Shown: piece by piece, positions 5,101 to 61,968 of the stretch | How positions within the stretch are numbered: position 1 is the stretch's first letter | Layout: each line of letters starts with the position of its first letter | DNA from: Entrophospora sp. SA101 | Taxonomy: Eukaryota; Glomeromycota; Glomeromycetes; Entrophosporales; Entrophosporaceae | Assembly: GCA_958430865.1 (NCBI GenBank) | Contig: CAUDNR010002146.1 | Span: 19,039 to 83,038 of the forward strand | Direction of reading: 5' to 3' | Length of the DNA stretch: 64,000 nucleotides | The notes under the pieces: generated by a model | Told to the model about the DNA's origin: nothing | What the model saw: only the letters and a program-made list of their open reading frames with translations | Databases searched by the model: none | Program-made: the position numbers and the translations under genes

Positions 5101-5687
5101 CAACTGTGCATGGGGACAAAATGATTCAAGTATAAAACTCTTAACTTTTGTTATAACATGGAACATCAATAAGTTTCTCAATTTTGTTTTAATGGGATTC
5201 TTATGTGAAAATATTTGCTCCACAAATTGGAATTATAATTGCTAACTGTCCTCCCAATTTCTTCAATACCGAATTCATCTTTATCTGGTAGTTCTTTTTA
5301 CATATGCATAATTTTCTATTTTGGGGAGTTTGAACTCACAATCACCACACTTCTTCCTCTTGGTTAATAAATAATACTCATCAAAATAGATATATTCAAA
5401 AATAATATAAAATTACAACCTTCGTGTTTTCCAAATGCTTGCTTGATCAAATATAAATTTTTATAATAACACTGAGGATTAAACTATTCTATGAAGTTGT
5501 TATCATATAATTCACTCTCGATTGATTCATAGCAACTATTATGCAAAGTTTAACCCACAAGGACCACAACAAAAAGGGTCATTTACAAAACATAAATAGT
5601 AAATATCATGTAAAATCGATGTCATATTCTTTTTCAAAAATTATATCACAAAAGCCAATATCCTCGAGTTAATCACTATTACGAGCA
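5101..5687. other. Intergenic, nothing recognised
   Basis: No coding signal on either strand and no structured repeat seen. The copy 2 counterpart is 37325-37911. Confidence 0.5.
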
Positions 5688-6284
5688 TCACATGTAAATC
5701 TTCCTAAATAAAGTAATTTTAGAATATTCGAATAGGAACATTGCCTTGAGTAATCCTTTAATTTCACTTAGATTAGTCCACAAGAGAAAACTTTGTGAGA
5801 TATCGTCACCTACCTTGCTAGTGGATCTAATTGAACAATCTAGCATATCTTGAGCCAATGTGAGAATGACTGGACCCGGAATCATGTCCATTTCTTCCAA
5901 TTCTTTTTTAACATCAAAAGACAGAATTATGACCTTTAGATATTTATGTGCTGCATTATTTGCATACATATAAAAGATTAATAGGTAGAGATGGTAGTAG
6001 TCACATCTGTAAATCTTCCTAAATAAAGTAATTTTAGAATATTCGAATAGGAACATTGCCTTGAGTAATCCTTTAATTTCACTTAGATTAGTCCACAAGA
6101 GAAAACTTTGTGAGATATCGTCACCTACCTTGCTAGTGGATCTAATTGAACAATCTAGCATATCTTGAGCCAATGTGAGAATGACTGGACCCGGAATCAT
6201 GTCCATTTCTTCCAATTCTTTTTTAACATCAAAAGACAGAATTATGACCTTTAGATATTTATGTGCTGCATTATTTGCATACAT
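5688..6284 (-). CDS. Unknown reading frame doubled by an in-frame tandem duplication (copy 1)
   Basis: One open minus-strand frame of 198 codons in which a block of about 105 residues occurs twice. The block includes 'VKKELEEMDMIPGPVILTLA' and 'SKVGDDISQSFLLWTNLSEI'. The DNA period is 315 bp, a multiple of three, so the frame survives. Amino-acid composition is protein-like, with no low complexity, but I do not recognise the family and see no signal peptide. The single-unit form at 37912-38193 is presumably ancestral. It may be an exon or fragment of a larger decayed gene, since no introns or flanking exons could be placed. Confidence 0.4.
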   Translation of the reverse strand: MYANNAAHKYLKVIILSFDVKKELEEMDMIPGPVILTLAQDMLDCSIRSTSKVGDDISQSFLLWTNLSEIKGLLKAMFLFEYSKITLFRKIYRCDYYHLYLLIFYMYANNAAHKYLKVIILSFDVKKELEEMDMIPGPVILTLAQDMLDCSIRSTSKVGDDISQSFLLWTNLSEIKGLLKAMFLFEYSKITLFRKIYM

Positions 6285-13420: not shown

Positions 13421-13872
13421 TTTTTCTAGTTACGCGCACAGTTTCTGGTTACGCACACAGCCTTTGAATCTAACTAAAATGGATCATTTTGGAATTTTTA
13501 TTAATTATTATTATCTTATCATTATAATTTTTATATATTACCTTTTGAAAATTTTATAACTAGCTGTAATGATGGTTTTCCTATTCATTGAAAATAAAAC
13601 TGTTAGATTCATTATTCTCATGGTACAATCCTATTGAAATAGTAATAGGCTACTTAACTTTTAAGCAATTCTATTATAGTGTTGCTATGATGGTTTCATT
13701 AATTAATAATAATATTATTATTTAGAAAGTAGTAATAACCTTATAAATAACTATAATCAGTCCTTTATAATTAAAAACAAAAATTTTCTAACACGACCTT
13801 CCAAGTGGTTATAAGCAACTTTGTCAAGAAATGATTACTTGAATAGAAGTCAGAGTTAAGTAATTAAGTAAT

Positions 13873-14505
13873 ATGGAAGAATTGCTTTATACAGTTCTGA
13901 ACTTAGATGAGTGAAATAAAGATGAAACCTGCGATTTTTGCCCTAACTTTAACAAAAGGAATAAAGCAGTTTCTCAAATTAGAACTCGTAATAAGGTAAG
14001 TCATAGGATAGTTGATAATGCTTGTGCTTGCGAAGATTGTAAGGATAAATTTGAGAATGATGAACTACCCAAATGTGAAAAGTGTGGTGAGTTAAAAACT
14101 AGAATGAGTTTTCATTATAATTGCTCTGAAAACAATGAGAAATGGTTGCCAGTCTTGCCCCACGAGGAAAGAGCATCCACTAGATATGAACGATAAATAA
14201 ACTCTTTACGAGAAGAGTTAACCACCACTGAGGAAGCACTAGAGATTGAAAGAGAAGTAGTTAAATTTCAAGAAAAATCAGAAGAGTGAAGCAAAAAGCA
14301 AAAACGGGAATTATTAGATCAAATTAAGCAATTAGAAGCAGAAAATGAAAAACTAAAAGGCTTAACTAATCAAGAATTAATCAAAGAAATCAATGAGTTA
14401 AAAGTTCAATTAGCACAATTACAACAACAAAATGGTCAGTTAGTTGCTCAAATTGAAGTTAAAGAAACTAAAAAATGACCTTGATTGAAAATAAAAGGTA
14501 ATTAA
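13873..14505 (+). pseudogene. Fossil gene with TGA as Trp, probably of Mollicutes origin (copy 1)
   Basis: From ATG 13873 a single phase runs 211 codons to TAA 14503 if TGA is read as Trp. TGA falls at 13912, 14287, 14476 and 14482, and there is one TGG. One in-frame TAA (14194) sits where CAA (Gln) would fit and the phase continues unbroken beyond it. Residues ~19-81 hold several Cys pairs (CDFC, CACEDC, CEKC), suggesting a zinc-ribbon-like head. From residue ~109 to the end is a Lys/Glu/Gln-rich heptad-like coiled coil (for example 'QIKQLEAENEKLKGL'). TGA positions give sensible contexts such as Glu-Glu-Trp-Ser and Lys-Lys-Trp-Pro-Trp-Leu. Codon-level continuity across five standard stops is unlikely by chance. 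Mollicutes use TGA=Trp and live inside arbuscular mycorrhizal fungi, which makes transfer from such an endobacterium likely; fungal mitochondrial DNA is the alternative. No homologue name can be given. Confidence 0.7.
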
Positions 14506-14543
14506 AAATTAACAGTTGAAAAAAAAGTAATTATTTGTTTTAG

Positions 14544-14792
14544 TTATTCTGCCAGTTTTCTTTTTTTTCTTGATTCTTTACTAGAATTATCTAATACTCT
14601 TTTGAGAACTCTTTCCTCTTGATAAATTTCATAGGTAATTCTTTCTTTGTCTAAATATATTTGCAAAGGTTTGGTATCTGCTAATTTAAAAATGTAAGGA
14701 GCAATTTTTTCACCTTGTTCCTTTTTCAAAATACTTCTAATGGTGCTGTAATTTTTGGGTTCCATGGTAGACTTAATGTAAATGAGTTTCAT
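14544..14792 (-). CDS. Hybrid unknown reading frame next to the TGA=Trp fossil (copy 1)
   Basis: Minus-strand frame from Met at 14792 (or further up at 14810) to TAA at 14544. Its first ~20 codons lie in the dispersed host repeat (14732-14955), reading 'MKLIYIKSTMEPKNYSTIRS'. The remaining ~62 codons ('KKEQGEKIAPYIFKLADTKP' and on to 'SRKKRKLAE') have no counterpart in the other repeat member. They converge on the TGA=Trp fossil with 38 bp between stops. The Lys/Glu-rich, Trp-free tail may be the 3' end of a second foreign gene fused by insertion to repeat sequence. No function recognised. Confidence 0.35.
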   Translation of the reverse strand: MKLIYIKSTMEPKNYSTIRSILKKEQGEKIAPYIFKLADTKPLQIYLDKERITYEIYQEERVLKRVLDNSSKESRKKRKLAE

Positions 14793-14955
14793 ATTAACTA
14801 TTTTTATCACTTAAGATAACAAATGGGATATTATAAAACTGTTAATTATGATCACACATTACAAATGACTAAATTTTGATCCCTGAAATCCTTGGTTAAT
14901 ACCAATGTTCACTTTGTCTGGTTTTGTTGCAGCATGCCCATATTATTTGCTTTAG
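14732..14955. repeat. Dispersed repeat, member B
   Basis: Homologous to 655-960 from 'tacttctaat' onward through 'gcatgcccatatta'. Part of its middle ('atccctgaaatccttggt') recurs near 28575, so at least three places share it. The homology to member A begins abruptly at 14732. Confidence 0.6.
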
Positions 14956-25882: not shown

Positions 25883-26853
25883 AAATTTAATATTGCATTA
25901 CTTCAATTGGAAAAACATCACCCCTCCTGCAAGGTCTGGGTTAAACATGGAGAAAATTGGGCAGTAAAAGTTATCCTAAGAAAAAAAAGTGATGTTGATT
26001 ATTTAAAAGAAGCAATCAAAGTAAAGTTATCACCCTCTTTGGACAATGTTCCAATTAGTCGGATCATTTTAAAAAGACATGGCGAAGAAACTGAGTTGCG
26101 CCCTGGTTTAACTATAGATAAGAACTTTACAACTACCACTGACACACCAATTCAAGTATTAGTAAAAGAATCTGGTACGTAATCAGTTTTTTATGGTTTT
26201 TTAACCGCAAAGAAGTTATAGAAATGTATATATTATTTACGATGTTAAACCGATTTTTTTTATTTTAAATTATTTTCATCTGAATTTTTTTTTAACATCT
26301 CATAAAGAACAAGGTAAACACGTTTGTGGTTAAGTTATTACGATTATATATGAAAAAACTCATTTAACATTGTCCGATGTTCTTTATTATATATATTATA
26401 AAACATGAAGAAAACGGTAAAATTAATGAAATTTTAAAAACTTTAAAAAATCAGAGTGAAAATTTAGAAAATATGGTAAAGAATCGGAATGAAAATTTAG
26501 AAAAAATGAGCAAGGAACTCGATGAACGCGAAACTAAAACTATATCAATTGTCACAGGTAAGCAACCGTATTGTTGAAAATGTATTACAAGATTATGGGA
26601 ACAAACATACGAAAGTACGTTCCGCGATTTCCATTGCGCAAGAATTAATTGATAAGCTATCATTAAATGTTAAAGTTGAGCCAAATGAATTTTCGTAGAG
26701 TGATCATAATGAGGGTCATCCTGTAAATACAAAAAAAGTCCTAGAATATTTTCAGGGCTCATTTATAAAACTTTATTGGTGGATGATAAAAAATTGTCAG
26801 AAAAAAATTCACCATTTATGTTAAACTTGGAGACATCATCAGGAAAATTTCTT
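25883..26853 (+). pseudogene. Crinkler-like effector gene, 5' part cut by an inversion (copy 1)
   Basis: The first exon (to about 26175, donor GTACGT) encodes a ubiquitin-like header, 'CKVWVKHGENWAVKVILRKK' and on to 'RHGEETELRPGLTIDKNF', of the type fronting Crinkler-like proteins in these fungi. It lacks an ATG in frame, so a start exon is missing or lost. A Lys/Glu/Asn-rich coiled coil lies at 26400-26540, and further fragments in other frames follow (near 26590 'IVENVLQDYGNKHTKV') with a stop near 26696. At 26850-26853 the sequence jumps to reversed HMG-box gene. The 3' part of this gene sits reversed at 29230-29711. Confidence 0.6.
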
Positions 26854-27440
26854 TTCGGCGCATTAGGATCTTTTAATTGATTTCTTTTAAATTTTCGTAC
26901 TTGATTTCCTCCTCCTCCTGTTGATTGATGTTGGTTATGAACATTACTATGATGCATGCGTCGTGAAATACTAGCAGTATTACTGCTACCACCACCACCA
27001 ATACTAAAACCAGCAACATTACCACCACCACCAAATGATATCATATTATTATCATTATTGTTGTTATTATTGTTATTATCACCAGGTATAATTCCTACGT
27101 CTCTTGGAATAAGTGACTGAAATTCATCACATGCTCTTGCTGCGTATCTAAGAGCATTTGCAACTTGAGTGAAAGCATCAACAAGCTTAAATTACATGTG
27201 TCATTTTAATAGATAAAATTTTGTCAATATGCTTGAGTAATGATGATTTTATACTTTTTTATTATTTGGTAAATTTATTGTCAATGGAGAAAGAAAAAAA
27301 TCGTATTGAATTTTACTACTTACGATTTCTTTTTTATGATTTAATTGTGATAAAAGTTCTGGATCAATATTTTCAGTTGTAACAATATTATTATTATCAT
27401 TGTTGTTGTTGTTGTTGTTAGGACGCGTGTCAGCGGGCAT
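26850..27440 (-). pseudogene. HMG-box gene truncated by inversion (copy 1)
   Basis: Exon 1 27324-27440 and the start of exon 2 from 27185 are identical to 61187-61777. The coding sequence stops inside the HMG box after 'LKDPNAPKR' and runs into reversed Crinkler-like sequence (NFPDDVSKF). Most of the box and the whole C-terminal region are absent, so no DNA-binding protein can result. Confidence 0.9.
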
Positions 27441-27711
27441 TTTTTATTATTTTATTTAAATATATTACTTTTTTTTTCTCAAATAAAAAAATAATTATAA
27501 AATTTATGAATTGAATTAAAAGAATTAAAAAAAAAAAAAAGGTAATTTCAGAGGAACACAAATTTCTAACAATTTCCAAATATGATTTTAAGGGTAGTAT
27601 GAGGTCATGCAAATTTTGATTATCGTTATTTAACAATCTATAAATTTAAATTGAATAATAATAAATGTTAAACTAAACTTATATTTCCCCATTCTCTAAC
27701 TAATTCTGAAT

Positions 27712-28003
27712 TTAAATATCAGTACAATAAATTTGCCTGCCAGTCAAACCCATTCTTAAAACAACAAATGTTAGTTTCGAATCTGCATCTTGTTGTTTTT
27801 CAATTGTTAAATACTCTTCGTTTTAATATTCCATTCAAAAGATTTACCAGCAATTTTAAAGATCTCATCCTCTGATTTTCCAATAATGATGGCAACACTT
27901 CGGCCAGCTGCCTTGAGTTCCATCTAACTTAACACATTCCATTTTGATATAAATTTCCTTTTTCTGATGCTTTTTTTACTAAATAAATTGTTTCTTTGCT
28001 CAT
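27712..28003 (-). pseudogene. Unrecognised decayed coding remnant (copy 1)
   Basis: From an ATG at 28003 it reads 'MSKETIYLVKKASEKGNLYQ', then after frame changes 'AAGRSVAIIIGKSEDEIFKI' and 'LTFVVLRMGLTGRQIYC'. Residue choice is clearly protein-like, but the frame breaks at least twice. I do not recognise the family. Counterpart at 60624-60915 on the plus strand. Confidence 0.4.
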
Positions 28004-28100
28004 TTCAAGCTCGGAGGATTCATATGTCACTCTTGTTCAATGTTTGCATGAAGAGCGAGAATCAGAATGTCTATAAAAGCTTATTTCAAAGCCTCGCCAT

Positions 28101-28419
28101 TTGAGTGCTTATGCAATTCTCAATACATTTTTTCCCTATAGCATTGGTTATTTTACTCGAAGCATAAAAAATATATTATTACCAATACTAGATGATGTAC
28201 TATACAACACAGTAACTTGGATTATTCCACTGACAGTTTCTTTTGTTTATCTAATTTGTGCAGTATCTGCGTTAATTAAAAAATAAGAGAATTAGAGAGA
28301 TGTCTTTTTTGATATTTTTTCTAGCTATAGTAATTCCAGTATTCTGGATCGTTTATATTAAAATCACACATGATATCGATTCAATTAGTATAGTATTCAT
28401 TGCATTATTTGGCTTGTAA
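28101..28419 (+). CDS. Two small hydrophobic reading frames (copy 1)
   Basis: The frame 28101-28286 encodes a peptide with 'FPYSIGYFTRSIKN' and a clear membrane segment ('TWIIPLTVSFVYLICAVSAL'). Only 13 bp later, ATG 28300 opens a 39-aa frame ('MSFLIFFLAIVIPVFWIVYI') ending at TAA 28419, also membrane-like. They may be pieces of one small membrane protein broken by a frame change or joined by an unseen intron. Family not recognised. Confidence 0.35.
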
Positions 28420-28879
28420 TAAAACATTGTTACACGTGACTTGTTACAATTCTATTCCTTTGACGGATGATTTTCTTCATTTGGATCCCTATAACTTCAT
28501 AAAATCATAATAATAATAATAATAAATAATAACAATAATCAATCACATTACATTGATGGCGACCAAATTTCAATCCCTGAAATCCTTGGTGATTCATTTT
28601 GTTGCGGTCTAACTTCAAGGAATTTAAATACCTTTTGAAATTGTGCAAAAAAGGGGTATCTACAATGTCGAGGAACTTTCCGGTAATTATAATCCTTCAT
28701 TTATGAAATGTAATTTTTCGTTCGTGAAGTCAATAATGATGAAATATTTTGTAATTTTTTTAAAATACTCGTGCATTTCTTAATGAATATAATATGATGA
28801 TAAATAAATATTCAAATTCTGTAATTGAACCGGTATCAATCAATAAATGATATCAAAGATGTATAAAAGTATAAGCATA

Positions 28880-29051
28880 CAGTCAGACTCCTATATAGTC
28901 ACACACCTCGGGACCATAGTGAAATTTCAAGAATTTTGGTGACTATAGTGTTTGTGACTATACAGGACTTGTTTTTACTATGATTTAACAAAAAAATGTG
29001 ACTATAATATGTTGCGACTATATAGGATGTGACTATATAGGAGTCTGACTG
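28880..29051. mobile_element. 172-bp MITE with perfect 23-bp inverted repeats (copy 1)
   Basis: Begins 'cagtcagactcctatatagt' and ends with its exact reverse complement over 23 bp; the left flank is TA. Inside, the motif 'gtgactata' repeats in both orientations, making the whole element nearly self-complementary. The 'CAGTCA' end and TA target suggest a pogo/Tc1-mariner-type non-autonomous element. Confidence 0.85.
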
Positions 29052-29229
29052 CAATAATACCGTTAATTTGTGGGAAAAACAATAAATTCTATTTTTTCAA
29101 TTAACATTATTATTATTATTCAAAATAGAGGATAACTACATGATTATTTATTCTGATTTTTAAAAAATCATTCCGAATATTTAAATTTTTACAGGAAATT
29201 TTTTTAAGCAACTTCGTTATAGTATTCCT

Positions 29230-29711
29230 AATTAAACATTGACATATATTCACCGTTATGATGATTTTCATCACCATGTGAAGAAAATAGATTATAATAA
29301 TCTTCTGCATATTCTGATGTAAAATTAAACGGGCTATCACCTTCTAAATGTTGGTTGAGACAAGTACGAAGCGAGCATTTTTCTTAATTTATATTTTCTT
29401 TCCATGAAATCAACCAGGTCGTCTAGATTTGCAATACCATCATTTATATTATTGAACTTTTTTTCTAATTTTATTTTGTTATCAATTGAACTATTGTATC
29501 TGCTACTGAAATCGTTAAATGCTGTTTAGCTCATATTATAAGAAAATCTAGCGATTTTAAATCCAACAGTCCATGATCCCTAATGCAATCTTTCGTTCAT
29601 TACCATTTAAATGCTTTATTTAATATAGCCTCATTATTATCATTAAACATTATCCATTTTAAAAACCAACATGTTTTTAGATCAGTCAATGGATGTAATG
29701 GAGTAAAAATG
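29230..29711 (-). pseudogene. Crinkler-like gene, 3' part in reversed orientation (copy 1)
   Basis: Carries the same C-terminal fragments as 58916-59397 and is now on the opposite strand from its own 5' part (25883-26853). The PD-(D/E)xK-like core (58763-58915 in copy 2) is deleted here. Confidence 0.7.
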
Positions 29712-45189: not shown

Positions 45190-45781
45190 GTATATTGCTT
45201 TGCAAGCTTCATAGATCTTGTCTTCAATACTTTAATTCCATCAAACCTACCTATATAACATTGAATAATTTATACAAATTGCTTTGCAACTTTAATTCCA
45301 TCAAACCCGCCTATATAGGTGTGGAAGATTTTTTCTAGTTACGCGCACAGTTTCTGGTTACGCACACAGCCTTTGAATCTAACTAAAATGGATCATTTTG
45401 GAATTTTTATTAATTATTATTATCTTATCATTATAATTTTTATATATTACCTTTTGAAAATTTTATAACTAGCTGTAATGATGGTTTTCCTATTCATTGA
45501 AAATAAAACTGTTAGATTCATTATTCTCATGGTACAATCCTATTGAAATAGTAATAGGCTACTTAACTTTTAAGCAATTCTATTATAGTGTTGCTATGAT
45601 GGTTTCATTAATTAATAATAATATTATTATTTAGAAAGTAGTAATAACCTTATAAATAACTATAATCAGTCCTTTATAATTAAAAACAAAAATTTTCTAA
45701 CACGACCTTCCAAGTGGTTATAAGCAACTTTGTCAAGAAATGATTACTTGAATAGAAGTCAGAGTTAAGTAATTAAGTAAT

Positions 45782-46414
45782 ATGGAAGAATTGCTTTATA
45801 CAGTTCTGAACTTAGATGAGTGAAATAAAGATGAAACCTGCGATTTTTGCCCTAACTTTAACAAAAGGAATAAAGCAGTTTCTCAAATTAGAACTCGTAA
45901 TAAGGTAAGTCATAGGATAGTTGATAATGCTTGTGCTTGCGAAGATTGTAAGGATAAATTTGAGAATGATGAACTACCCAAATGTGAAAAGTGTGGTGAG
46001 TTAAAAACTAGAATGAGTTTTCATTATAATTGCTCTGAAAACAATGAGAAATGGTTGCCAGTCTTGCCCCACGAGGAAAGAGCATCCACTAGATATGAAC
46101 GATAAATAAACTCTTTACGAGAAGAGTTAACCACCACTGAGGAAGCACTAGAGATTGAAAGAGAAGTAGTTAAATTTCAAGAAAAATCAGAAGAGTGAAG
46201 CAAAAAGCAAAAACGGGAATTATTAGATCAAATTAAGCAATTAGAAGCAGAAAATGAAAAACTAAAAGGCTTAACTAATCAAGAATTAATCAAAGAAATC
46301 AATGAGTTAAAAGTTCAATTAGCACAATTACAACAACAAAATGGTCAGTTAGTTGCTCAAATTGAAGTTAAAGAAACTAAAAAATGACCTTGATTGAAAA
46401 TAAAAGGTAATTAA
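45782..46414 (+). pseudogene. Fossil gene with TGA as Trp (copy 2)
   Basis: Same sequence as 13873-14505 with the same four TGA codons and the same internal TAA. The transfer and the TAA lesion therefore predate the 32-kb duplication, and the copies add no independent evidence of selection. Confidence 0.7.
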
Positions 46415-46452
46415 AAATTAACAGTTGAAAAAAAAGTAATTATTTGTTTTAG

Positions 46453-46701
46453 TTATTCTGCCAGTTTTCTTTTTTTTCTTGATTCTTTACTAGAATTATC
46501 TAATACTCTTTTGAGAACTCTTTCCTCTTGATAAATTTCATAGGTAATTCTTTCTTTGTCTAAATATATTTGCAAAGGTTTGGTATCTGCTAATTTAAAA
46601 ATGTAAGGAGCAATTTTTTCACCTTGTTCCTTTTTCAAAATACTTCTAATGGTGCTGTAATTTTTGGGTTCCATGGTAGACTTAATGTAAATGAGTTTCA
46701 T
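46453..46701 (-). CDS. Hybrid unknown reading frame (copy 2)
   Basis: Identical to 14544-14792 in position and sequence relative to the neighbouring fossil. Confidence 0.35.
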   Translation of the reverse strand: MKLIYIKSTMEPKNYSTIRSILKKEQGEKIAPYIFKLADTKPLQIYLDKERITYEIYQEERVLKRVLDNSSKESRKKRKLAE

Positions 46702-47905
46702 ATTAACTATTTTTATCACTTAAGATAACAAATGGGATATTATAAAACTGTTAATTATGATCACACATTACAAATGACTAAATTTTGATCCCTGAAATCC
46801 TTGGTTAATACCAATGTTCACTTTGTCTGGTTTTGTTGCAGCATGCCCATATTATTTGCTTTAGTGTTATTAACTTTATTATTATTATTATAGCAGACAT
46901 AAGAATTGTTCATTATTCGAAAGAAATTTTTATTAATCATTAAATGACAACATACTGACACTTTTTGCTGGTCCTAATTCTTTCAATCAAATTACTTTGT
47001 GAAAAAATTTCCTGAATATTGACGTTTGTCTTTGTGAATATACAAGCAATGGAAATTGTGGTAATTAAATTAACATTAATCGAGGCTTTTATTATATACA
47101 TACATACATATATATATACCTACCTGTGAATTTATTATTTGTAAAGTCAATGGCTTCAACAAAATCATTTTTTTATGATTAGGACATTTAAATAAAGATG
47201 GGATTAAACATAATGCAGCTAGTGTTAAAATACTAGCTATAGTTGCAACTAATTATGTAAAGCTAGCTAGTTCTAACTGCATAATTTATTGAAAAAAATA
47301 AAATAAATTTTTTATGGACGAAGAAAGTTAAACCATAAAGGAGCTATACCGCTAAATTTGCTAGCTCGTTTTACAGACCTTTTTTTTTTTATTGCTTTAA
47401 TTCATTGTATACGAAGTATTTAATAATAATTATGTATATATATATACATTTGGTAATCGTAAACACTAACAAATTCGCGTGGATTGGTATGCTATGCAAT
47501 CATACGCGATATTGGATGTTATAATGGTTAAACCTGGAATGTCTACTTGGAGATGCAACCACTAGCTATTTATCAAGTTTCTGGTGAATTTGGAGACAAA
47601 AGTTTTTGATCTTAAAGTTGCAGTATTTGAAAGTATGAAATCTTTCTTAAAAGCGGGCAAAAGTTATTATTGCTTTTTTAATTAATTTGAATAATTATTT
47701 AATTGTAATTTTATTTTTTGATAGTGATGATAATAATTAATAATTTTTATTATTATTACTACATATGTAGTGCAAATATAATCTTGTACTCTGCAACTTC
47801 CTGAATGGTTGGAGAAAGATGTAAGTTTTTTTTCCTTTCAAATAAGATCTAATGAACTTATGAATCCCGGTAAATGTGAAATTATTATTATATTATCAGA
47901 TTATA

Positions 47906-57791: not shown

Positions 57792-59397
57792 AAATTTAAT
57801 ATTGCATTACTTCAATTGGAAAAACATCACCCCTCCTGCAAGGTCTGGGTTAAACATGGAGAAAATTGGGCAGTAAAAGTTATCCTAAGAAAAAAAAGTG
57901 ATGTTGATTATTTAAAAGAAGCAATCAAAGTAAAGTTATCACCCTCTTTGGACAATGTTCCAATTAGTCGGATCATTTTAAAAAGACATGGCGAAGAAAC
58001 TGAGTTGCGCCCTGGTTTAACTATAGATAAGAACTTTACAACTACCACTGACACACCAATTCAAGTATTAGTAAAAGAATCTGGTACGTAATCAGTTTTT
58101 TATGGTTTTTTAACCGCAAAGAAGTTATAGAAATGTATATATTATTTACGATGTTAAACCGATTTTTTTTATTTTAAATTATTTTCATCTGAATTTTTTT
58201 TTAACATCTCATAAAGAACAAGGTAAACACGTTTGTGGTTAAGTTATTACGATTATATATGAAAAAACTCATTTAACATTGTCCGATGTTCTTTATTATA
58301 TATATTATAAAACATGAAGAAAACGGTAAAATTAATGAAATTTTAAAAACTTTAAAAAATCAGAGTGAAAATTTAGAAAATATGGTAAAGAATCGGAATG
58401 AAAATTTAGAAAAAATGAGCAAGGAACTCGATGAACGCGAAACTAAAACTATATCAATTGTCACAGGTAAGCAACCGTATTGTTGAAAATGTATTACAAG
58501 ATTATGGGAACAAACATACGAAAGTACGTTCCGCGATTTCCATTGCGCAAGAATTAATTGATAAGCTATCATTAAATGTTAAAGTTGAGCCAAATGAATT
58601 TTCGTAGAGTGATCATAATGAGGGTCATCCTGTAAATACAAAAAAAGTCCTAGAATATTTTCAGGGCTCATTTATAAAACTTTATTGGTGGATGATAAAA
58701 AATTGTCAGAAAAAAATTCACCATTTATGTTAAACTTGGAGACATCATCAGGAAAATTTCTTAAAGGCAAATCAGACTTATATGTTTTGTGGGATAGTTC
58801 GGACTCTTTACGTAGTATAATTAATTGTATTAATGGAAATTAAAAAACCTGACAGCATTAATTCATCTCAACTTGATCAAGCAGTAGCGTAGCTGATAGC
58901 TGCACATACTACTTCCATTTTTACTCCATTACATCCATTGACTGATCTAAAAACATGTTGGTTTTTAAAATGGATAATGTTTAATGATAATAATGAGGCT
59001 ATATTAAATAAAGCATTTAAATGGTAATGAACGAAAGATTGCATTAGGGATCATGGACTGTTGGATTTAAAATCGCTAGATTTTCTTATAATATGAGCTA
59101 AACAGCATTTAACGATTTCAGTAGCAGATACAATAGTTCAATTGATAACAAAATAAAATTAGAAAAAAAGTTCAATAATATAAATGATGGTATTGCAAAT
59201 CTAGACGACCTGGTTGATTTCATGGAAAGAAAATATAAATTAAGAAAAATGCTCGCTTCGTACTTGTCTCAACCAACATTTAGAAGGTGATAGCCCGTTT
59301 AATTTTACATCAGAATATGCAGAAGATTATTATAATCTATTTTCTTCACATGGTGATGAAAATCATCATAACGGTGAATATATGTCAATGTTTAATT
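57792..59397 (+). pseudogene. Crinkler-like effector gene with PD-(D/E)xK-like region (copy 2)
   Basis: Full-length arrangement of the family. It has a header (57816-58084), a coiled coil (58309-58450), and a region with 'KSDLYVLWD' followed about 20 residues later by 'EIKKP', which fits the Asp and Glu-x-Lys of a PD-(D/E)xK nuclease fold. Next comes 'TTSIFTPLHPL' and a C-terminal part near 59280-59397. The frame changes at least three times and stops interrupt it, so it is a decayed gene. Family knowledge: such proteins combine a ubiquitin-like header with nuclease-like C-domains and are thought to act in host or neighbouring cell nuclei. Confidence 0.6.
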
Positions 59398-59575
59398 AGG
59401 AATACTATAACGAAGTTGCTTAAAAAAATTTCCTGTAAAAATTTAAATATTCGGAATGATTTTTTAAAAATCAGAATAAATAATCATGTAGTTATCCTCT
59501 ATTTTGAATAATAATAATAATGTTAATTGAAAAAATAGAATTTATTGTTTTTCCCACAAATTAACGGTATTATTG

Positions 59576-59747
59576 CAGTCAGACTCCTATATAGTCACAT
59601 CCTATATAGTCGCAACATATTATAGTCACATTTTTTTGTTAAATCATAGTAAAAACAAGTCCTGTATAGTCACAAACACTATAGTCACCAAAATTCTTGA
59701 AATTTCACTATGGTCCCGAGGTGTGTGACTATATAGGAGTCTGACTG
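59576..59747. mobile_element. 172-bp MITE (copy 2)
   Basis: Reversed counterpart of 28880-29051; the insertion predates both the duplication and the inversion. Confidence 0.85.
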
Positions 59748-60207
59748 TATGCTTATACTTTTATACATCTTTGATATCATTTATTGATTGATACCGGTTC
59801 AATTACAGAATTTGAATATTTATTTATCATCATATTATATTCATTAAGAAATGCACGAGTATTTTAAAAAAATTACAAAATATTTCATCATTATTGACTT
59901 CACGAACGAAAAATTACATTTCATAAATGAAGGATTATAATTACCGGAAAGTTCCTCGACATTGTAGATACCCCTTTTTTGCACAATTTCAAAAGGTATT
60001 TAAATTCCTTGAAGTTAGACCGCAACAAAATGAATCACCAAGGATTTCAGGGATTGAAATTTGGTCGCCATCAATGTAATGTGATTGATTATTGTTATTA
60101 TTTATTATTATTATTATTATGATTTTATGAAGTTATAGGGATCCAAATGAAGAAAATCATCCGTCAAAGGAATAGAATTGTAACAAGTCACGTGTAACAA
60201 TGTTTTA

Positions 60208-60526
60208 TTACAAGCCAAATAATGCAATGAATACTATACTAATTGAATCGATATCATGTGTGATTTTAATATAAACGATCCAGAATACTGGAATTACTAT
60301 AGCTAGAAAAAATATCAAAAAAGACATCTCTCTAATTCTCTTATTTTTTAATTAACGCAGATACTGCACAAATTAGATAAACAAAAGAAACTGTCAGTGG
60401 AATAATCCAAGTTACTGTGTTGTATAGTACATCATCTAGTATTGGTAATAATATATTTTTTATGCTTCGAGTAAAATAACCAATGCTATAGGGAAAAAAT
60501 GTATTGAGAATTGCATAAGCACTCAA
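60208..60526 (-). CDS. Two small hydrophobic reading frames (copy 2)
   Basis: Reversed counterpart of 28101-28419 (frames 60341-60526 and 60208-60327, minus strand). Same sequence. Confidence 0.35.
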
Positions 60527-60623
60527 ATGGCGAGGCTTTGAAATAAGCTTTTATAGACATTCTGATTCTCGCTCTTCATGCAAACATTGAACAAGAGTGA
60601 CATATGAATCCTCCGAGCTTGAA

Positions 60624-60915
60624 ATGAGCAAAGAAACAATTTATTTAGTAAAAAAAGCATCAGAAAAAGGAAATTTATATCAAAATGGAATGTGTTAAGT
60701 TAGATGGAACTCAAGGCAGCTGGCCGAAGTGTTGCCATCATTATTGGAAAATCAGAGGATGAGATCTTTAAAATTGCTGGTAAATCTTTTGAATGGAATA
60801 TTAAAACGAAGAGTATTTAACAATTGAAAAACAACAAGATGCAGATTCGAAACTAACATTTGTTGTTTTAAGAATGGGTTTGACTGGCAGGCAAATTTAT
60901 TGTACTGATATTTAA
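60624..60915 (+). pseudogene. Unrecognised decayed coding remnant (copy 2)
   Basis: Reversed counterpart of 27712-28003 with the same breaks. It lies about 270 bp upstream of the HMG-box gene on the same strand. Confidence 0.4.
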
Positions 60916-61186
60916 ATTCAGAATTAGTTAGAGAATGGGGAAATATAAGTTTAGTTTAACATTTATTATTATTCAATTTAAATTTATAGATTGTTAAATA
61001 ACGATAATCAAAATTTGCATGACCTCATACTACCCTTAAAATCATATTTGGAAATTGTTAGAAATTTGTGTTCCTCTGAAATTACCTTTTTTTTTTTTTT
61101 AATTCTTTTAATTCAATTCATAAATTTTATAATTATTTTTTTATTTGAGAAAAAAAAAGTAATATATTTAAATAAAATAATAAAAA

Positions 61187-61968
61187 ATGCCCGCTGACAC
61201 GCGTCCTAACAACAACAACAACAACAATGATAATAATAATATTGTTACAACTGAAAATATTGATCCAGAACTTTTATCACAATTAAATCATAAAAAAGAA
61301 ATCGTAAGTAGTAAAATTCAATACGATTTTTTTCTTTCTCCATTGACAATAAATTTACCAAATAATAAAAAAGTATAAAATCATCATTACTCAAGCATAT
61401 TGACAAAATTTTATCTATTAAAATGACACATGTAATTTAAGCTTGTTGATGCTTTCACTCAAGTTGCAAATGCTCTTAGATACGCAGCAAGAGCATGTGA
61501 TGAATTTCAGTCACTTATTCCAAGAGACGTAGGAATTATACCTGGTGATAATAACAATAATAACAACAATAATGATAATAATATGATATCATTTGGTGGT
61601 GGTGGTAATGTTGCTGGTTTTAGTATTGGTGGTGGTGGTAGCAGTAATACTGCTAGTATTTCACGACGCATGCATCATAGTAATGTTCATAACCAACATC
61701 AATCAACAGGAGGAGGAGGAAATCAAGTACGAAAATTTAAAAGAAATCAATTAAAAGATCCTAATGCGCCGAAAAGACCAAATACTGCATATATTTTGTT
61801 TAGCAATGAAATTCGTCCAGAGACTAAAGATGCTAATCCAAAAGCAAATCAAAAAGAAATAGTCACTATGATTGGTCAAAAATGGAAAGCTCTTTCTAGT
61901 GAACAAAAAAAGGTAAATTATATATATATAATATATTTTGAATCTTTTTTTATTAAATTTTTATTTTT

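What the first reader, a model, noticed from the sequence alone, without database searches (positions are those of the whole stretch)
13873..14505. A reading frame that needs TGA=Trp inside a fungal nuclear scaffold
One phase stays open for 211 codons if four TGA codons are Trp and one TAA is a point lesion. The predicted protein has Cys-pair motifs and a long coiled coil, and each TGA sits in a natural Trp context; TGA outnumbers TGG four to one, as in Mollicutes. Known biology supplies a donor, because Mollicutes-related endobacteria inhabit arbuscular mycorrhizal fungi. Published transfers I know of run mostly from fungus to bacterium, so a bacterium-to-fungus fossil would be notable. The segment sits between host kinase debris and a host repeat, so it is not obviously a contaminating contig.
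Basis: partly seen in the sequence, partly recalled or inferred. Interest (0 to 1): 0.92.

Follow-up and report, generated by a model that had tools for sequence, protein, structure and literature searches.

The report
Bacterial-code transposon in fungal nucleus
A stretch of a mycorrhizal fungus's nuclear DNA is one of many copies of a transposon whose genes read correctly only if the stop codon TGA means tryptophan, as it does in bacteria that live inside such fungi, so this mobile element appears to have evolved in one genetic code and inserted into a genome that uses another.

Summary
The frame is real: 13873-14505 (+) is open apart from four TGA and one TAA. It is not a single fossil. It is ORF3, with the last codons of ORF2, of a truncated copy (about 13825-14943) of a repeated element of about 4.3 kb. 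The fullest copy read, on C1574 (L051), encodes a 590-aa DUF7869 protein, a coiled-coil protein and this Cys/coiled-coil protein; all three need TGA=Trp. In this assembly all 77 ORF1 match rows contain TGA and 42 contain no other stop. In the loci held, TGA falls on Trp columns 108 times of 137 and alternates there with TGG. dN/dS read in code 4 is mostly below 0.2. Some copies lie near fungal genes and share one right end with different flanks. A Moeniiplasma protein is a 54% homologue of ORF1, and code-4 bacterial genes occur in the assembly. But no copy was listed on a bacterial-marker contig (0 of 21), and the tree does not nest the copies with Moeniiplasma. Best reading: a transposon evolved in Mollicutes-type endobacteria and repeatedly inserted into the fungal nucleus; donor, direction and mobilising enzyme are inferred.

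The parts
13825..14943 (+). 5'-truncated copy of the element (left edge approximate)
   Evidence: similarity to other copies begins near 13825 and ends at the shared right end at 14943
13825..13863 (+). last 13 codons (with stop) of ORF2, with a TGA where the copies printed beside it have Gln or Arg codons
   Evidence: read by eye
13873..14505 (+). ORF3, Cys-pair plus coiled-coil protein, code 4
13912..13914 (+). TGA read as Trp14
14194..14196 (+). TAA where 15 of 16 other aligned copies have a Gln codon
14287..14289 (+). TGA read as Trp139; in this column 9 of 17 copies have TGA and 8 TGG
14476..14484 (+). TGA-CCT-TGA, Trp202 and Trp204 of the C-terminal KKWPWLKIK motif (TGA in 15 of 17 and 16 of 17 copies)
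14876..14943 (+). conserved right end of the element
45736..46852 (+). second copy of the element within the duplicated part of the window (ORF3 45782-46414)

Best explanation
The segment is the 3' end of a truncated DNA-transposon copy. The full element (about L051:2466-6722) carries a DUF7869 transposase-like ORF1, a coiled-coil ORF2, and ORF3 (Cys pairs plus coiled coil), whose start lies between a one-base overlap and 15 nt after the ORF2 stop. SHOWN: the three ORFs need TGA=Trp; ORF1 and ORF3 are constrained as proteins in that code; several copies lie on contigs with fungal genes, and many share one right end with different flanks. INFERRED: the coding lineage lived where UGA is Trp, most likely Moeniiplasma-type endobacteria; DNA of several of its lineages entered the fungal nucleus repeatedly and inserted as a transposon. 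Nuclear copies cannot give full-length ORF1 by the standard code, so they are probably dead on arrival, or are moved in trans by stop-free DUF7869 relatives in the same nucleus. The window copy then decayed.
For: Frames and TGA. TGA at Trp columns 108 times, elsewhere 29; TAA plus TAG 15; TGG 45 at the same columns, in 11,184 codons. ORF1: 77 of 77 rows contain TGA, 42 TGA only, sums TGA 246, TAG 26, TAA 79 (74 of 1646 candidates scored; tallied). Control: of 24 rows classed as standard-type DUF7869, 13 are stop-free, 10 contain a TGA, sums 11, 6, 9. dN/dS in code 4: ORF3 median 0.19 over 136 pairs of 17 copies; ORF1 of L051 against 11 loci, 16 segments: 10 at 0.08-0.18, 6 at 0.25-0.52. Flanks: of 20 ORFs given to Pfam, 9 hit above cut-off, all of eukaryotic type: TFIIS/SPOC about 0.57 kb from the C1574 element end (and on C1028), hAT and sortilin on C313, F-box on C1645, kinase, HMG box and TLC in the window. 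Operon-like ORF2-ORF3 spacing. Moeniiplasma homologue P0154. Tyrosine-recombinase genes in the assembly, 20 of 24 with TGA as the only stop. Own ORF3 copies fall in several lineages among environmental proteins.
Against: No element copy is listed on any of 21 contigs bearing NusA or tyrosine-recombinase genes (only rows listed compared). In the ORF1 tree the TGA type joins the standard-code fungal proteins at 100/99 to the exclusion of P0154 and two environmental proteins; the outgroup branches are very long and the root is unsure. P0154 matches this genome's best copies at 55-60% over most of its length, up to 65% over short pieces, covers ORF1 only, and comes from a MAG that could hold fungal contigs; its codons were not seen. 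Scans of genome contigs (19, 25) and viral contigs (24, 66, 98, 99) found no relative. Ten of 24 standard-type rows also contain TGA. Blocks of 100% identity between diverged copies show exchange within the assembly, or assembly reuse. How bacterial DNA is inserted at precise ends is not shown.
Confidence: 0.55

Rival explanations
1. The element is truly nuclear and the fungus itself makes its proteins by decoding UGA as Trp (suppressor tRNA or efficient readthrough).
For: Several copies are nuclear, numerous and constrained; none was listed on a bacterial-marker contig; the TGA type groups with standard-code fungal proteins in the tree as drawn; sites W220 and W316 are TGA in 5 of 5 sequences held each.
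Against: Standard-type DUF7869 relatives in the same genome are stop-free in 13 of 24 rows. Readthrough of four or five UGA in about 200 codons should be very inefficient. ARAGORN found no Trp tRNA in the window or 12 loci; the rest of the genome was not scanned. Fungal ORFs examined carry TGG, but they were chosen as stop-free, so this is weak.
Confidence: 0.16
2. The coding reservoir is the fungal mitochondrion (or a mitochondrial plasmid), where UGA can also be Trp, and nuclear copies are derived from it.
For: Code 4 fits mitochondria as well as Mollicutes; no COX1 is in the assembly, so the mitochondrion could not be examined.
Against: A named bacterial homologue exists in Moeniiplasma; several divergent intact lineages in one genome are hard to house in a mitochondrion.
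Confidence: 0.08
3. Assembly chimerism: endobacterial contigs were joined to fungal ones, or repeats were reused by the assembler.
For: Bacterial genes are in this assembly; hidden MRE contigs in fungal assemblies are published (PMC11423566, passages); identical blocks between diverged copies and the 99.98% duplication of the window look partly like assembly effects.
Against: 152 ORF3 matches, the listed rows on 112 contigs; one right end against differing flanks; no bacterial family among 20 neighbouring or host ORFs scanned, 11 of which had no hit above cut-off; annotated pieces of the same protein in Geosiphon (contig of 1.19 Mb), Gigaspora, Ambispora, Diversispora and Funneliformis.
Confidence: 0.08
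4. An ordinary nuclear DUF7869 transposon that has decayed; TGA are random stop lesions.
For: DUF7869 is a fungal family in Rhizophagus; many copies are truncated or hold TAA/TAG.
Against: TGA is concentrated at Trp columns and exchanges with TGG; TGA exceeds TAA plus TAG 246 to 105, against 11 to 15 in the standard type; dN/dS is far below 1.
Confidence: 0.02

Closest known systems
Standard-code DUF7869 (PF25273) proteins of Rhizophagus irregularis, R. clarus and Glomus cerebriforme (P0142, P0146, P0156, P0160, P0207)
   Same: Same ORF1 family; Trp at the W316 TGA site in 5 of 5 and at W220 in 4 of 5.
   Different: 31-39% identity to ORF1; open in the standard code as annotated; not tested for ORF2 and ORF3 neighbours.
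Candidatus Moeniiplasma glomeromycotorum hypothetical protein I3273_02745 (P0154)
   Same: Homologue of the C-terminal half of ORF1, 54% identity, from a Mollicutes bacterium; that these read TGA as Trp is recalled.
   Different: 329 aa; outside the clade of this genome's copy; neighbouring genes and codons not seen.
Annotated fragments in other Glomeromycotina (Ambispora P0126, Geosiphon P0137, Gigaspora rosea P0127/P0217, Diversispora eburnea P0134, Funneliformis P0218)
   Same: Same family: P0217 joins ORF1-, ORF2- and ORF3-like pieces (by eye); in P0126, P0127, P0134, P0135 and P0137 the annotated protein skips the W316 site. W316 is absent in 16 of 17 such proteins, though several do not reach it.
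   Different: Called as spliced or partial fungal genes; P0210 (Geosiphon) keeps a Trp at W316, and several keep W220; the TGA itself was not read in their DNA.
Endosymbiont or foreign-code DNA in nuclear genomes (Wolbachia inserts in Glossina, PMC3998919; mitovirus sequences in plant genomes, PMC4393810; both seen only in search listings)
   Same: Foreign DNA inside a eukaryotic host genome.
   Different: Here a multicopy transposon with a shared end, not genome fragments or viral cDNA.

Membership tests
DUF7869-type DNA transposon | DUF7869 domain in a transposase-sized ORF | tested here: met
   PF25273 E=4.8e-17, 62.6 bits over cut-off 26, in ORF1 of L051 (that the domain is a transposase is inferred)
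DUF7869-type DNA transposon | Dispersed copies with a fixed end at different sites | tested here: met
   30 right ends, chosen because they matched, share the terminal sequence and then differ, apart from a few repeated loci; other loci lack that end
DUF7869-type DNA transposon | Fixed left end | tested here: inconclusive
   20 of 42 rows start at query 166-167 (L051:2466-2467), but 12 start at query 1-2
DUF7869-type DNA transposon | Terminal inverted repeats and target-site duplication | tested here: inconclusive
   no long inverted copy of the right end upstream of ORF1; at most a short ATGGGG-like match by eye; no duplication recognised at the truncated window copy
DUF7869-type DNA transposon | Nuclease fold / catalytic residues of ORF1 | not tested
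   structure job unfinished; sequence search of solved structures gave only E>=0.22
Mollicutes (Moeniiplasma) element | TGA=Trp coding under purifying selection | tested here: met
   (a mitochondrial code would give the same)
Mollicutes (Moeniiplasma) element | Homologue in a Moeniiplasma genome | tested here: inconclusive
   ORF1 yes, by name, from a MAG; none named for ORF2 (30 hits) or among the 120 of 270 ORF3 hits listed
Mollicutes (Moeniiplasma) element | Copies nested among Moeniiplasma sequences in a tree | tested here: not met
   P0154, the only such sequence, falls outside the TGA clade; one sequence and an unsure root make this weak
Mollicutes (Moeniiplasma) element | Copy on an endobacterial contig of this assembly | tested here: not met
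   0 of 21 marker contigs among 157 contigs of listed matches; the bacterial contigs are probably incomplete
Plain endosymbiont-to-nucleus DNA fragment | Adjacent bacterial genes carried along | tested here: not met
   9 of 20 ORFs scanned hit, all eukaryotic-type families; most loci were not examined

The most novel reading that the evidence does not exclude
A eukaryotic-type transposon captured by Mollicutes-related endobacteria was recoded to TGA=Trp, diversified there, and shuttles back into nuclear genomes across Glomeromycotina, where its copies, unreadable by the host, may be mobilised by standard-code relatives: a mobile element living across two domains of life and two genetic codes.
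Probability: 0.37. Interest if true: 0.95.

Novelty: new variant of a known kind. Interest (0 to 1): 0.85.

Why it matters
Transfers reported between these endobacteria and their fungi, in the passages I read, run from fungus to bacterium (PMC10507103; PMC5982333). A multicopy nuclear element in the bacterial code would show traffic the other way, carry a built-in marker of direction (the codon), and allow a test of how a transposon crosses a change of genetic code. It would also explain why several fungal annotations of this protein skip the TGA sites.

Tried and rejected
Random decay of a nuclear gene was rejected. A phage or plasmid origin found no support: tblastn of ORF1 against plasmids and phages gave nothing, nor did P0154 against plasmids; IMG/VR scans gave no relative. 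A degenerate KKWPWLKIK pattern hit two IMG/VR contigs, chance matches. Bac_DnaA was absent, which at first suggested no bacterial contigs; NusA_N and Phage_integrase hits corrected this. COX1 was absent, so the mitochondrial rival is untested. ARAGORN called a tRNA-Val in L051; Rfam did not confirm it, so it is not used. A 16S search could not be run. The ORF1 structure job was unfinished; the ORF3 job was not accepted. My first idea of LINE-like variable left ends was dropped. PHROGs and NCBIfam gave only coiled-coil-like or weak matches. Literature: no held paper contains 'DUF7869'; searches listed no such element in the titles and abstract starts shown; most subscription journals are not held, and the two 2015 PNAS papers on MRE genomes were not read.

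Full report
OBSERVATION. Window 13873-14505 (+), read with table 4, gives 210 residues with one internal TAA; four Trp are TGA. Shuffles show that length alone is modest evidence (2 of 500 for a one-lesion frame of 211 codons or more, 112 of 500 for an open run of 107 or more). The window is G000:C1344:19039-83038 of a 101-Mb, 2123-contig assembly.

A REPEATED ELEMENT. A DNA search found 40 matches (40 of 960 candidates scored) and a code-4 protein search 152 (150 of 371 scored). Of the best 50 protein rows, 31 have TGA as the only in-frame stop and none lacks TGA; sums are TGA 169, TAG 6, TAA 21. Five lower rows lack TGA. The window copy is truncated (about 13825-14943) and keeps the last codons of an upstream ORF. 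The fullest copy held, L051 on C1574, has ORF1 (590 aa, 4 TGA, no other stop), ORF2 (296 aa, 3 TGA, no other stop) and ORF3 with six TGA and one TAA. ORF1 has DUF7869 (E=4.8e-17); ORF2 and ORF3 match no Pfam family above cut-off. In the copies printed (one, L027, set aside because ORF2 is not recognisable), ORF3 starts between a one-base overlap (L034) and 15 nt (L051) after the ORF2 stop. ORF2 and ORF3 end in an AQIEVK-like motif (by eye).

TGA MEANS TRP. Over 60 alignments from the loci held (11,184 codons; identity at least 45%, length at least 40, contained duplicates dropped, queries themselves included) TGA lies at a Trp column 108 times and elsewhere 29 times; TAA and TAG together occur 15 times; TGG occurs 45 times at the same columns. 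Among 17 ORF3 copies, 58 of 64 TGA are at columns with Trp in other copies and 4 at Arg columns. ORF1 W316 is Trp in 5 of 5 standard-code fungal relatives and W220 in 4 of 5, whereas the other three Trp positions are not Trp in them. All 77 ORF1 rows contain TGA and 42 contain only TGA. Of 24 rows that I class as standard-type DUF7869, 13 are stop-free, 10 contain a TGA, and the sums are TGA 11, TAG 6, TAA 9; the TGA share differs (246:105 against 11:15, Fisher p=0.007). dN/dS in code 4 is 0.19 (median, 136 pairs, 17 ORF3 copies). For ORF1 of L051 against 11 loci, 10 of 16 segments give 0.08-0.18 and 6, mostly C-terminal ones, 0.25-0.52. L031 and L036 differ by five ORF3 substitutions, with dN 0.002 and dS 0.040.

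WHERE THE COPIES ARE. The C1574 element ends about 0.57 kb from a TFIIS/SPOC gene. C313 carries sortilin ORFs and a hAT C-terminus, C1645 an F-box protein, and the window a kinase, an HMG box and a TLC domain; 11 of the 20 ORFs scanned had no hit above cut-off. Thirty right ends, chosen because they matched, share one terminal sequence and then differ, apart from a few repeated loci; some loci lack that end. The left end is less sure: 20 of 42 matches start at L051:2466-2467 and 12 run to the query start. The assembly also contains bacterial genes: NusA_N on C994 and C2074, without stops, and 24 Phage_integrase matches, 20 with TGA as the only in-frame stop and 4 without stops. None of these 21 contigs is among the 157 contigs of ORF1 or ORF3 rows listed.

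RELATIVES. ORF3 of L023 has 270 relatives, the listed ones mostly on short environmental contigs. ORF1 has 99. The named ones are mostly AM fungi: TGA-type relatives as fragments in Ambispora, Gigaspora, Diversispora, Geosiphon and Funneliformis, and standard-type proteins in Rhizophagus. Others are a Moeniiplasma MAG protein at 54%, two Nitrososphaeraceae MAG proteins at 36% and 34%, which group with the standard type in the tree, and a weevil protein. ORF2 has 30, none named Moeniiplasma. DUF7869 rings in 0 of 14 control genomes. In the ORF1 tree (38 proteins) the TGA clade lies between the Moeniiplasma-like proteins and the standard-code clade; as drawn it joins the standard clade at 100/99, with very long outgroup branches and an unsure root. 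In the ORF3 tree (17 own copies and 24 environmental proteins that I chose) this genome's copies fall in several lineages; bootstrap values had not settled.

MECHANISM. Shown: ORFs read with TGA=Trp and constrained; several copies near fungal genes; a shared right end. Inferred: the lineage lived in Mollicutes-type endobacteria; DNA entered the nucleus many times; insertion was by transposition, perhaps with a nuclear DUF7869 enzyme acting in trans. Against this stand the absence of a copy on the bacterial-marker contigs, the tree, and the distance of the one Moeniiplasma homologue. Blocks of 100% identity of about 1.0-1.6 kb between copies that differ by 10% or more on one or both sides are unexplained: gene conversion, recombination or assembly reuse.

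LITERATURE. PMC10507103 (passages) reports genes moved from fungi to MRE. PMC11423566 (passages) finds MRE in 19 of 389 fungal assemblies and names contamination of MRE assemblies with fungal contigs as a possible source of false positives. PMC5982333 (passages) says very few bacterium- or plant-to-AM-fungus transfers had been reported by 2018. PMC13315312 (passages) gives no such element in the passages shown. No held paper contains DUF7869.

Noticed in passing
window 698-26853 and 32905-58762: Tandem near-identical duplication of about 26 kb at a spacing of about 32 kb (99.98% over 20.8 kb, 98.2% over 5.3 kb), plus a 2.9-kb 100% identical inverted pair (26850-29711 / 58916-61777). Real duplication, uncollapsed haplotype or assembly artefact.
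   Followed up: partly
L051, L056, L023, L024, L025, L031, L036: Copies at different loci are 100% or nearly identical over about 1.0-1.6 kb around ORF3 but clearly different on one or both sides.
   Followed up: partly
L051:4647-5537 and 5553-6140; window 13873-14505: ORF2 and ORF3 proteins share an AQIEVK-like motif near their ends; ORF3 copies look as if coiled-coil segments were exchanged (by eye).
   Followed up: no
window 14544-14810 (-): An 88-aa frame without TGA lies antisense inside the repeat downstream of ORF3; no Pfam match. Conservation not tested.
   Followed up: no
G000 contigs C37, C555, C61, C1304, C2028, C293, C1735, C994, C2074 and others: Bacterial, largely code-4, genes appear in this fungal assembly.
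   Followed up: partly
window 14194-14196 and L043 residue 105: The window copy and the C1574 copy have TAA at the same Gln codon though about 74% identical overall: shared lesion or repeated C-to-T change.
   Followed up: partly
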